A stretch of 64,000 bases of DNA from the NCBI RefSeq assembly GCF_008632075.1, contig NZ_VWVM01000002.1, positions 317,462 to 381,461 of the forward strand, read 5' to 3'. How positions within the stretch are numbered: position 1 is the first letter of the stretch; every line of letters begins with the position of its first letter. The DNA comes from Candidatus Pantoea gossypiicola. Its GTDB lineage: Bacteria; Pseudomonadota; Gammaproteobacteria; Enterobacterales; Enterobacteriaceae. The position numbers and the translations under genes were made by a program. The notes beneath the pieces were generated by a model. That model was not told where the DNA came from, did no database searches, and worked only from the letters and a program-made list of their open reading frames with translations. Positions 11,405-61,923 of this stretch are shown here, in pieces.

Positions 11405-11976
11405 GGCGGCGATTCTAAATAGTGTCCCCTGATAGCGCCACCCCTTTTTCTGTGCTTAACTCTGGGATTGATGTGGCGGCAGGTCGCCTCCCTGCTGACT
11501 TTTTCAGCAAACCGCTGCTTTGTCCGACACATTAATAAGTTAAATGTAAAGAAACTTCACAAGCTGGCTAAAGTCGCCTTGCTATATGAAGGTTAGCAGT
11601 GGAATAATGCTTGAGTTTCTTACCTGAAGCATTTCAGGGCAGAAAAAGAGCGAAATTGTCATTTTGCCGGATTGAGCAGACACGCAGCAATGGCGTAAGA
11701 CGTAATGCGAAATCAGGCACTTAGCGGGCTGCGGGTTGCGGCCTGGACAACAGTATGGGATGCACGGGTTTTTTAATTGTCTCAGGCATTTCCACTATCT
11801 GGTGCTGTTTTCCCTTATGAAAAACAGGCCACCGACGTTATTTGCGCCCCTCGCGCGGTCGACAGCCGTGAGGTTGACGACATTGCACTAAGTCACGGGG
11901 CCATCGGTTGATACTCGTCCAGGGTAACTATGCCCGCAGCTGTAATCACTCATGAAAGAATAACGAGTAAGTCACG
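11405..11976 (+). promoter_or_regulatory. rne promoter region and long structured 5' leader
   Basis: This 572-nt gap between rluC and rne holds no convincing gene. In E. coli the rne messenger has a leader of about 360 nt that RNase E itself reads for feedback control, so most of this stretch is probably leader. A clear stem is seen at 11801-11833: GGTG-CTGTTTT pairs with AAAACAG-(GC)-CACC across a small loop. A T-rich stretch lies at 11769-11776. The exact promoters are not assigned. The segment just before the gene, ending GAATAACGAGTAAGTCACG, lacks a strong ribosome binding site. Confidence 0.6.
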
Positions 11977-60153: not shown

Positions 60154-60999
60154 CTAATGCCGGAAGGCGCAGCCACAGGCGGACATCTCACCCGGTATAA
60201 CTTTGCCAGAATGGGAGTGACGCTGCTGTAATTGCCCCTCTTCACCGCTGTTTTCTGCCTGCTGCCCCAGCCAGCGATCTAACGCCCGGCCAATGAGCTG
60301 TCTGATGTCAGGTGACCAGCTGGTCAGATGCCAGGTCGGACTGCGGGCTTCCTCACTGTCGCCGAATCCAGCCACCGCCAGATGCGTACCCTGACCAAAA
60401 TCGCGTACTGCCTGTATCGCACCAAACGCCAGCAGATCGCTTTCACAGAAAAGTGCCTGAATGCGCTCAGCGGCACGGGTCTTTTTCAGATACTGCATCA
60501 TCGCCTGATAAGCGCCGTCACGGTCGCCAGCGCCAGCAGTCAGTTCTGCATCCAGCTTCATGCCCGCTGCCTGTAATGTGGTGCAGTAGCTCTGCTTTTG
60601 CGCCCTGTCACCGGGCTGGCTCTGCAAAAAGCCAAACCGCTGATGCCCCTGCGCGAGCAGTAACGCTGCGGTTGCTTCGCCCGCCCGCAGCGCATCCGCC
60701 TGCCATTCAGGTTCAGCGTCAATCTCCAGCACCGGCAGATTGCAGGCACTGATGGACTTGTTTCCGGGCAACAGCAGCAACCCCCGCAGCGCAAGGGATG
60801 TCGCCTGCTGGATGAGTGCAGTCAGTGCCACGTCGGTTTCGGCATTCAGCAGCACGGTGATAACCCCGCGCGCATTGAGCTGGCGCGTTACCTCATTTAG
60901 CATTTTCTGTTGACAGGGGTTGAGCAGCTGGCTGGCGACAACGCCGATAACTGGAGGTAAAGCCGGTTCCGTTAAGACAGGAATAGAAGGTGTACTCAT
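60154..60999 (-). CDS. LacI-type sugar-sensing domain protein without a DNA-binding domain
   Basis: The 281-aa product looks like the periplasmic-binding-like effector domain of LacI-family regulators: IGVVASQLLNPCQQKMLNEVTRQLNARG, RGLLLLPGNK, LLLAQGHQRFGFLQSQPGDRAQKQSYCTTLQAAGM, ALFCESDLLAFGAIQAVRDFG and VAGFGDSEEAR. The helix-turn-helix normally found before it is missing, and the 150 nt upstream do not encode one in any frame I checked. I chose ATG 60999 (MSTPSIPVLTEPALP). The C-terminus is Cys/His-rich (MSACGCAFRH). It could be an orphan sensor, a co-regulator, or a truncated regulator. Confidence 0.75.
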   Translation of the reverse strand: MSTPSIPVLTEPALPPVIGVVASQLLNPCQQKMLNEVTRQLNARGVITVLLNAETDVALTALIQQATSLALRGLLLLPGNKSISACNLPVLEIDAEPEWQADALRAGEATAALLLAQGHQRFGFLQSQPGDRAQKQSYCTTLQAAGMKLDAELTAGAGDRDGAYQAMMQYLKKTRAAERIQALFCESDLLAFGAIQAVRDFGQGTHLAVAGFGDSEEARSPTWHLTSWSPDIRQLIGRALDRWLGQQAENSGEEGQLQQRHSHSGKVIPGEMSACGCAFRH

Positions 61000-61142
61000 T
61001 GGCGTTAACTTCTCTGAGACGACAAACAATCCCCCACTTTACGGTAAGCCAGGGTATTTCAACAGATTACAGAGTTCGATGCAGGCCGCAAAAATGAGTG
61101 AAATCAGATGTAAATGGGTTTGCGGTGGCAGAGCAGCAGGCG

Positions 61143-61268
61143 TCAAGAAGAGGTGAGAGATGGACCGGGCAGCAGGAATTGAACCCGCATCGTCAACCCA
61201 TTAAGAGTTGCAGTAATACCTTTATACCATGCCCGAAAGTTTGCCAGGACAGCGCACTGTGTAAACAA
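61143..61268 (-). CDS. Doubtful 41-codon frame overlapping the tRNA-like gene
   Basis: An AAGGAGG box (plus 61276-61282) lies seven bases before a TTG (61268) that opens a frame of 41 codons running through the whole tRNA-like gene to TGA at 61143. A ribosome binding site this strong is notable, but the sequence is better explained as a tRNA-Gly-like gene. The promoter I would assign to the tRNA starts transcription downstream of this TTG. Confidence 0.2.
   Translation of the reverse strand: MFTQCAVLANFRAWYKGITATLNGLTMRVQFLLPGPSLTSS
61161..61236 (-). tRNA. tRNA-Gly(UCC)-like gene with predicted UAA anticodon
   Basis: The 76-nt minus-strand sequence folds as a cloverleaf. The acceptor is TCGGGCA/TGCCCGG with a terminal T-G pair, and encoded discriminator T plus CCA lie at the 3' end. 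The D arm is GTA/TAC with loop TAAAGGTAT, the anticodon stem CAACT/GGTTG, the variable region ACGAT, and the T arm GCGGG/CCTGC with loop TTCAATT. It closely follows E. coli glyT (tRNA-Gly UCC) outside the anticodon arm. The loop CTTAATG puts UAA at positions 34-36 and U, not a purine, at 37. It may be a functional odd tRNA, a pseudogene or an attachment-site relic. Confidence 0.65.
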
Positions 61269-61295
61269 GATTAGTCCTCCTTTCAGAACTCACAA
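61268..61295 (-). promoter_or_regulatory. Candidate promoter for the tRNA-like gene
   Basis: On minus, TTGTGA (plus 61290-61295), a 16-base spacer and TAATCT (plus 61268-61273) form a plausible sigma-70 promoter. Transcription would begin near 61261, giving a 25-nt leader before the tRNA-like sequence at 61236. Confidence 0.45.
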
Positions 61296-61445
61296 GCGCA
61301 AGCGCCGTGTATTTTCAGGAATCGCTGCATAACCCCATTAACAAGGTACCGGCACCTGCAGACATTGATTATTCCGCTAATCTTAAATTTCAGGCAGCCT
61401 GTCCCGACCGGGACGTATGGCCAACACTACATAGAGGTCAAGACT

Positions 61446-61703
61446 ATGCCTTCAGGACAATTCTACGTGGTTGATCAGCCAGAACTGAGCTTTACCGCGA
61501 ACTATCGTCTGGATAGGGTCAATGATAAACCCTTTGCCTCTCGAATGGTTCTGGATATCCAGAAGCAGTCACAGCCAACAGATGTATTCGATGCTATAAG
61601 CATCGGGCATGAAGTGACCTTTGTTTCGTCCAGTGGAGAGGCGCAAAGAATGGTGCTGGTAAGTGATACGGAGGATGAACTGGTGTTCAGCTCCCGCGGC
61701 TGA
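61446..61703 (+). CDS. Small protein of unknown function (85 aa)
   Basis: I chose ATG 61446 (MPSGQFYVVDQPELSFTANYRLD), with GAGGTC upstream, rather than the longer frame beginning 27 codons before. The 85-aa product is beta-rich with no Cys, has DQPELSFTANYRLDRVNDKPFASRMVLDI and a C-terminal VTFVSSSGEAQRMVLVSDTEDELVF pattern of alternating hydrophobic residues. No family recognised. It lies on the plus strand between the tRNA operon terminator and the tRNA-like gene. Confidence 0.7.
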   Translation: MPSGQFYVVDQPELSFTANYRLDRVNDKPFASRMVLDIQKQSQPTDVFDAISIGHEVTFVSSSGEAQRMVLVSDTEDELVFSSRG

Positions 61704-61836: not shown

Positions 61837-61923
61837 TGGTGCCCGGGGCGGGACTTGAACCCGCACGACCTTACGATCGAGGGATTTTAAATCCCTTGTG
61901 TCTACCGATTTCACCACCCGGGC
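61837..61923 (-). tRNA. leuZ: tRNA-Leu (anticodon UAA)
   Basis: An 87-nt class II tRNA: acceptor GCCCGGG/CCCGGGC, a long variable arm (CTCGATCGTAAGGTCG region) as in all Leu tRNAs, T loop TTCAAGT, and the anticodon TAA within GGATTTAAAATCC. The 3' ACCA is encoded. The third tRNA of the Gly-Cys-Leu cluster downstream of pgsA, as in E. coli glyW-cysT-leuZ. Confidence 0.97.

What the first reader, a model, noticed from the sequence alone, without database searches (positions are those of the whole stretch)
61161..61236. tRNA-Gly-like gene with a predicted UAA anticodon, outside the tRNA operon
The sequence shows a full cloverleaf with an encoded CCA and near-identity to E. coli tRNA-Gly(UCC) in the acceptor, D and T arms, including U73, which is a glycine identity element. 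The anticodon stem has been rebuilt (CAACT/GGTTG) and the loop CTTAATG places UAA at the decoding positions. If charged with glycine, it would put Gly at Leu UUA codons, a mistranslating tRNA. If not, it may be a pseudogene, a regulatory decoy, or the scar of an integrated element that carried a tRNA end. A plausible promoter lies just upstream (61268-61295).
Basis: partly seen in the sequence, partly recalled or inferred. Interest (0 to 1): 0.75.

Follow-up and report, generated by a model that had tools for sequence, protein, structure and literature searches.

The report
Non-decoding tRNA mimic in Pantoea
This is a small RNA gene that descends from a glycine tRNA but whose codon-reading loop drifts freely while the rest is strictly conserved, so it probably works outside protein synthesis; relatives sit beside a small zinc-ribbon gene in prophages, a plasmid and chromosomes of related bacteria.

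Summary
The tRNA-like gene is real (61161-61236, minus strand; Rfam tRNA 36.6 bits). It is neither a mistranslating tRNA nor a decaying pseudogene. Of 61 Pantoea genomes, 16 hold a well-scoring relative and 2 a decayed one; three Mixta-like genomes and one genome of a further genus also have it. Among 11 genomes at the window's locus, 64 body positions took 10 changes where four-fold sites predict about 116; the seven loop positions took 10 (about 13 predicted). Loops have 6, 7, 9 or 11 bases, U33 is often missing and the 'anticodon' differs between sister species, so decoding cannot be what is conserved. Pair 51-63, which tunes EF-Tu binding, is never G-C.

All 14 copies examined outside the window's locus (some found through the ORF) lie just behind a small zinc-ribbon ORF: at several chromosomal places, on a Mixta plasmid and inside prophages. 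At the window's locus only 1 of 13 genomes has that ORF; the others keep the RNA alone.

Best reading: a tRNA-Gly-derived RNA, probably phage-borne, kept by the host and acting through elbow and acceptor arm off the ribosome, as decoy or regulator. Expression, charging and partner are untested.

The parts
61161..61236 (-). tRNA-like RNA (tRNA-Gly-derived; acceptor, D and T arms conserved, anticodon loop CTTAATG not conserved among relatives)
   Evidence: ARAGORN and Rfam; relatives and conservation
61197..61205 (-). variable anticodon loop: nine bases TCTTAATGG with the canonical stem, seven (CTTAATG) if the outer T-G pair forms
   Evidence: 10 changes at 7 positions against 10 at 64 body positions; alignment of 23
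61268..61295 (-). putative promoter TTGTGA-16-TAATCT
   Evidence: same form and 16-base spacer in 10 of 10 genomes; not reported by the consensus scan
61293..61304 (-). upstream block CGCTTGCGCTTG
   Evidence: invariant in 10 of 10 genomes aligned; might also serve the divergent ORF at 61365-61703

Best explanation
The element is a functional non-coding RNA descended from a tRNA-Gly of the UCC type. Shown by comparison: the cloverleaf, the T-loop and D-loop bases, G3-C70, C2-G71 (22 of 23) and U73 (21 of 23) are kept; the anticodon loop is not, in sequence or length; homologues travel with a small zinc-ribbon ORF in prophages, on a plasmid and at several chromosomal places. Inferred: it arrived with a phage-borne cassette; most genomes with the window's locus lost the zinc-ribbon ORF and kept the RNA; it is transcribed from the upstream promoter and trimmed by RNase P and the usual 3' enzymes. 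Least certain: it folds into an L shape, binds a protein that reads only elbow and acceptor arm of tRNAs, and works off the ribosome as a decoy or regulatory ligand; the 51-63 pair, weakened in every copy, would help to keep it away from EF-Tu.
For: Body conserved about ten-fold below the four-fold-site rate while loop and flanks drift; cloverleaf pairing 94.6% with 24 double-changed cells against 12.6 in shuffles; loops of 6, 7, 9 and 11 bases, U33 absent from 10 of the 18 seven-base loops; pair 51-63 G-U in 16, A-U in 6, broken in 1 of 23, never G-C, A51-U63 being one of the changes reported for S. aureus tRNA-Gly species that avoid EF-Tu (passages of PMC4052509); zinc-ribbon ORF 4-47 bases upstream in 15 copies; phage genes around the cassette; B. 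cereus tRNA-Other as precedent for a pseudo-tRNA with a regulatory role (passages of PMC3399842).
Against: No expression, charging or binding data. The strict promoter scan finds nothing. The window copy folds only moderately better than shuffles (z -1.95) and its lone-strand fold prefers a shifted D arm. Pair 27-43 fails in 17 of 23 and the 3' A of CCA is not kept by all. Some copies are decaying: G044, G033, G080's second copy, probably G011 and the Mixta plasmid's. Most Pantoea genomes searched (43 of 61) show no such RNA, so it is dispensable to the genus. The partner protein is unknown.
Confidence: 0.6

Rival explanations
1. Non-ribosomal glycine donor: GlyRS charges the RNA, it escapes EF-Tu and hands glycine to a transferase, as is proposed for some tRNA-Gly species of Staphylococcus aureus in cell-wall building.
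For: U73, C2-G71 and G3-C70 kept in most copies and 51-63 weakened; S. aureus species carry A51-U63 (passages of PMC4052509).
Against: G1-C72 is in 0 of 23 and C35 with C36 in 0 of 18 seven-base loops, so charging should be poor; two prophage copies have A73; G18 G19 are kept, unlike the S. aureus species; the two ORFs next to the gene are no transferases by the libraries searched.
Confidence: 0.12
2. Cis-acting processing module: the tRNA-like fold marks an RNase P cut that defines the 3' end of the zinc-ribbon mRNA or separates it from the next gene.
For: The RNA starts 4-47 bases behind the zinc-ribbon stop codon in 15 copies.
Against: In 12 of 13 genomes with the window's locus the ORF is not found, yet in the window's group the body stays conserved.
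Confidence: 0.1
3. Phage counter-defence against tRNA nucleases: the loop varies because it escapes or baits host anticodon nucleases.
For: Phage-borne copies; phage tRNAs are reported to carry anticodon-loop changes that evade nucleases (PMC10264068 abstract; passages of PMC11455837).
Against: Those phage tRNAs must still decode; these cannot. The loop evolves at, not above, the four-fold-site rate, so no diversifying selection is seen. PADLOC has no match for the linked proteins.
Confidence: 0.07
4. Pseudogene or scar of an integrated element without function.
For: Decayed copies exist and prophages carry the cassette.
Against: 10 body changes where about 116 are expected at the four-fold rate, with diverged flanks in the same place; compensatory changes.
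Confidence: 0.07
5. Decoding tRNA, reading UUA as glycine or leucine.
For: Cloverleaf, encoded CCA and UAA in the loop of the window copy.
Against: Anticodon, U33 and loop length are not conserved in relatives; the genome has an ordinary tRNA-Leu(UAA) next door at 61837-61923.
Confidence: 0.03

Closest known systems
Bacillus cereus pseudo-tRNA tRNA-Other (PMC3399842, passages read)
   Same: A tRNA-like gene that is not used in translation and lies beside imported DNA; there it is reported as part of a regulatory RNA.
   Different: Its Trp-type anticodon was tested for a T-box role; here the loop is not conserved. No sequence comparison was made here. A zinc-ribbon partner and prophage carriage are peculiar to the present family as far as I saw.
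Staphylococcus aureus non-proteinogenic tRNA-Gly (PMC4052509, passages read)
   Same: tRNA-Gly derivatives with A51-U63 in place of G51-C63.
   Different: S. aureus species change G18 G19 and serve as glycine donors; here G18 G19 are invariant and the glycine anticodon is lost.
Phage tRNAs that evade anticodon nucleases (PMC10264068, abstract; PMC11455837, passages)
   Same: Phage-borne tRNA-type RNAs with altered anticodon arms.
   Different: Those replace cleaved host tRNAs and so must decode; these cannot.
ECs_2282/YmcF-like putative zinc-binding proteins (NF047912, PF23641)
   Same: The cassette ORF of G007 is a relative (27.2 and 21.6 bits).
   Different: Both scores are below the curated cut-offs (37 and 27), and 48 of the 59 loci fetched for such ORFs show no tRNA-like RNA.

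Membership tests
tRNA by structure (Rfam RF00005) | score at or over the gathering cut-off of 29 bits | tested here: met
   36.6 bits
Decoding tRNA | seven-base loop with U33 | tested here: not met
   U33 in 8 of 23 aligned copies; 10 have a seven-base loop without it, 5 another length; the window copy itself has U33
Decoding tRNA | anticodon conserved among orthologues | tested here: not met
   loop changes at about the four-fold-site rate
tRNA-Gly | identity set U73, G1-C72, C2-G71, G3-C70, C35, C36 | tested here: not met
   G1-C72 0 of 23, C35 with C36 0 of 18; U73 21, C2-G71 22, G3-C70 23 of 23 (set)
Pseudogene | body changes at the neutral rate | tested here: not met
   10 changes against about 116
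S. aureus non-proteinogenic tRNA-Gly | weakened 51-63 pair | tested here: met
   never G-C in 23 copies
S. aureus non-proteinogenic tRNA-Gly | G18 G19 replaced | tested here: not met
   both invariant in 23 copies
Regulatory pseudo-tRNA | transcribed, not on ribosomes, removal changes gene expression | not testable with these tools
   needs RNA-seq, polysome and deletion data
ECs_2282/YmcF-like protein (cassette ORF) | score over the curated cut-off | tested here: not met
   27.2 of 37 bits and 21.6 of 27 bits for the best of the ORFs tried

The most novel reading that the evidence does not exclude
A family of phage-borne tRNA mimics that have given up the anticodon (prophage copies can close to a four-base loop), paired with a zinc-ribbon protein as a two-part accessory cassette that moves between prophages, plasmids and chromosomes of Erwiniaceae, and of which the Pantoea agglomerans group has kept the RNA half as a stand-alone ligand of some tRNA-binding protein.
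Probability: 0.4. Interest if true: 0.85.

Novelty: new variant of a known kind. Interest (0 to 1): 0.7.

Why it matters
Gene finders call this one gene tRNA-Leu, Gln, Pro, Val, Stop and so on in sister species (ARAGORN does), which hides a conserved RNA that is not a decoder. If its partner is found, it would show how a tRNA can be turned into a ligand for a tRNA-binding protein, and a phage use of tRNA mimicry other than codon supply or nuclease evasion. The natural set of loops on one conserved body is a ready-made mutagenesis experiment.

Tried and rejected
Decoding was rejected on the variable loop. A role as leader of the downstream LacI-like gene was rejected because that ORF is absent behind the RNA in G014 and G042 and begins 0.7 and 2 kb away in G007 and G009. 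tRNA-Gly genes of lambdoid phages and prophages found by similarity proved to be ordinary UCC genes in the four stretches that read as whole tRNAs; HK639 holds only a 3' half. The T-arm pattern hit 17 contigs; 15 gave a model match: 9 are the P. agglomerans-type RNA without a zinc-ribbon ORF within 420 bases, 4 hold the cassette, L419 is a glyT-like gene and L414 scored only 44.8 bits. The contigs of L413, L415 and L418 are those of L409, L410 and L408. In the named collections no close relative of the RNA was found (best 78-80% identity, the glyT level, or half matches; none at E 1e-6 for the L409 copy); the zinc-ribbon ORF of L409 had no phage match and two plasmid matches, one of which carries a diverged RNA. 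Literature searches listed no description of this RNA; I saw listings and abstract beginnings, and of five papers passages or the abstract.

Rows dropped before counts: G009 and G044 were left out of the parsimony count, G009 for lack of the neighbouring gene in its fetched stretch, G044 as decayed; G044, G080's second copy and G033's remnant were left out of alignment A5, as were G002 and G049, whose RNA is identical to the window's. In one search the loop was taken as nine positions (32-40), as seven (32-38). The family-wide model search used a strict limit and printed a truncated list, so weak relatives may be missed.

Full report
What is there. The window comes from a Pantoea genome: its pgsA protein is 99% identical to that of P. 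agglomerans NBRC 102470. Past uvrC, pgsA, the glyW-cysT-leuZ tRNA operon (names recalled from E. coli) and a divergent ORF (61365-61703, plus) lies a tRNA-like gene at 61161-61236 on the minus strand. ARAGORN reads tRNA-Leu(TAA); Rfam's tRNA model gives 36.6 bits, over its cut-off of 29, while 73 of the genome's 75 tRNA matches score higher. It is 78% identical to the genome's glyT-type tRNA-Gly(UCC).

Relatives. A DNA search of 61 Pantoea genomes gave 17 with a match above the ordinary glyT level (E at most 5.8e-10). In 16 of them the RNA scores 79.7-101.9 bits with the covariance model R1, more than glyT itself (75.1); most of the 16 built the model. G044 scores 63.7. G033 holds a further remnant of 17.3 bits. 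R1 run over 295 genomes of 154 genera of the family added one genome of another genus, G080; the 14 other hits that I read were ordinary tRNA-Gly genes. A search with the linked zinc-ribbon ORF over 392 genomes of the family led to three genomes of genus g131 (G190, G356, G415), whose pgsA region is nearest to Mixta theicola among the named loci.

The loop is free, the body is not. In the alignment of 23 sequences the seven-base loops read CTTAATG, CTTCATG, CTTCAGG, CTTTATG, CTTAACG, CAGCATG, CAGAATG, CCTGGTG, CTTCGGG, TGTTACG, TGTTATG, CGTTGAG, CGTACCG and CGTACAG; four copies have a six-base loop that can close to a tetraloop (G020, L338, L409, L410) and one an eleven-base loop (G032). In the window's group the canonical five-pair stem leaves nine bases, of which the outer two can pair (T-G or T-A) to leave seven. 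Counting changes on a tree of a neighbouring transporter gene in 11 genomes, the 64 body positions took 10 changes, the seven loop positions 10, and 269 four-fold sites 488; at the four-fold rate the body should show about 116 (Poisson P 5e-37) and the loop about 13. Pairwise against G000, the body differs at 0-2 of 64 positions in nine genomes whose four-fold divergence is 0.14-0.36, and at 5 in G007 (0.44); G009 (no four-fold data) differs at 8 and the decayed G044 (0.47) at 13. The 100-base flanks range from 0.92 down to 0.41 identity, where shuffled sequence gives 0.45. The loop evolves at about, not above, the four-fold rate, so there is no sign of diversifying selection.

Structure. With the cloverleaf written on the alignment, 94.6% of cells pair (shuffled 91.2, sd 0.7) and 24 cells change on both sides (shuffled 12.6, sd 3.2); none of 500 shuffles reached either. 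Sliding the partners drops pairing to 26-55%. The number of pairs with double changes (5; 19 of 500 shuffles reach it) and of further pair types (216 of 500) is less telling, and related sequences can beat shuffles without structure. Pair 27-43 fails in 17 of 23. T8, A14, G18, G19, T54, T55, C56 and A58 (tRNA numbering mine) are invariant in the 23, as a normal elbow needs. Folded alone, the window copy has z -1.95 and prefers a shifted D arm; the 12 other relatives range from z -2.97 to +0.57. G011, with +0.57 and two broken pairs, is probably decaying.

Identity and EF-Tu. The bacterial glycine set is U73, G1-C72, C2-G71, G3-C70, C35 and C36 (passages of PMC9976931). U73 (21 of 23), C2-G71 (22) and G3-C70 (23) persist; G1-C72 (0 of 23) and C35 with C36 (0 of 18 seven-base loops) do not. 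Pair 51-63, G-C in glyT, is G-U in 16, A-U in 6 and unpaired in 1 of 23. A51-U63 is one of the changes reported in the S. aureus tRNA-Gly species that avoid EF-Tu (passages of PMC4052509). So charging should be poor and EF-Tu binding weak; both are predictions.

A two-part cassette. In 15 copies a zinc-ribbon ORF of 49-75 residues (starts chosen by script; pattern C-x2-C, in G032 C-x2-Y, then HGA-x-C-x2-C) ends 4-47 bases upstream on the same strand: G007 at the window's locus and 14 copies elsewhere, two of them decayed. No copy examined outside the window's locus lacks it, but five of the 14 (G356, G415, G080's second copy, G033, the Mixta plasmid) were found through the ORF; the other nine were found, or found again, through the RNA. 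At the window's locus it is found in G007 and not in the other 12 genomes fetched, G009 and G044 included. The ORF is a sub-cut-off relative of ECs_2282/YmcF-like proteins. Of 59 loci fetched for such ORFs (30, 29), 11 show the RNA or its remnant, so the RNA marks one branch. Contexts differ: near a YciG-like stress ORF in G017 and G032 (cluster c22; name mine), a general stress gene on the 8.4-kb Mixta hanseatica plasmid, and, by my reading without a family search, cardiolipin-synthase-like and TonB-like ORFs in G020. Viral contigs carry it within phage DNA: L338 with exonuclease VIII, RecT and a methyltransferase on one side and an IraP-like ORF on the other; L409 with a phage repressor, GhoS-like ORFs (below Pfam's cut-off) and a second zinc-ribbon ORF followed by what looks by eye like a decayed RNA. 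Nine other viral contigs carry the P. agglomerans-type RNA without the ORF; I read them as host flank of a prophage, and L334, the one whose ORFs I listed, also holds the divergent host ORF of the window.

The window's group. There the RNA stands alone. Against it: a strict sigma-70 scan reports nothing, in some genomes another pair scores as high or higher, and the block could serve the divergent ORF. The encoded CCA is not kept by all: CCT in G057, G001, G007 and G009, CCC in six P. agglomerans-type viral contigs.

Conclusion. The evidence supports a retained, non-decoding RNA derived from tRNA-Gly, probably of phage-borne origin. What is conserved is what maturation enzymes and proteins that read elbow or acceptor arm see; what is lost is what the ribosome and GlyRS need. 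I commit to an off-ribosome role as decoy or regulatory ligand of such a protein (0.6 for the whole statement; the partner is open). The nearest functional precedent that I read of is B. [quoted passage not shown]

Noticed in passing
window 60154-61029, minus: LacI-type sugar-binding domain protein (PF13377, PF00532) of 291 aa in which neither Pfam nor NCBIfam shows a DNA-binding N-terminus; it lies just downstream of the tRNA-like gene.
   Followed up: no
window 61365-61703, plus: Conserved 112-aa ORF (85 aa from the inner start) divergent from the tRNA-like gene, without a Pfam or NCBIfam match.
   Followed up: partly
L121 (G057) and L126 (G001): About 40 kb (G057) and 8 kb (G001) lie between pgsA and the tRNA-like gene, against about 1 kb in the window, so elements have inserted at this tRNA operon.
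   Followed up: partly
L409 1602-3727: Two zinc-ribbon ORFs in tandem, each followed by a GhoS-like ORF, in a prophage early region; the first tRNA-like RNA looks decayed by eye.
   Followed up: partly
L338 5181-5546, plus: IraP-like anti-adaptor ORF (95.9 bits) directly behind a prophage copy of the tRNA-like RNA.
   Followed up: no
L194 and L196: Phage or prophage tRNA clusters (Met/Ile, Lys, Thr, Gly) behind the Q antiterminator.
   Followed up: no
L197 (phage HK639) 2001-2037: A glyT 3' half behind the Q gene, perhaps a recombination scar.
   Followed up: no
window 11616-11952, plus: RNase E 5' UTR element rne5, 186.5 bits; ordinary.
   Followed up: no
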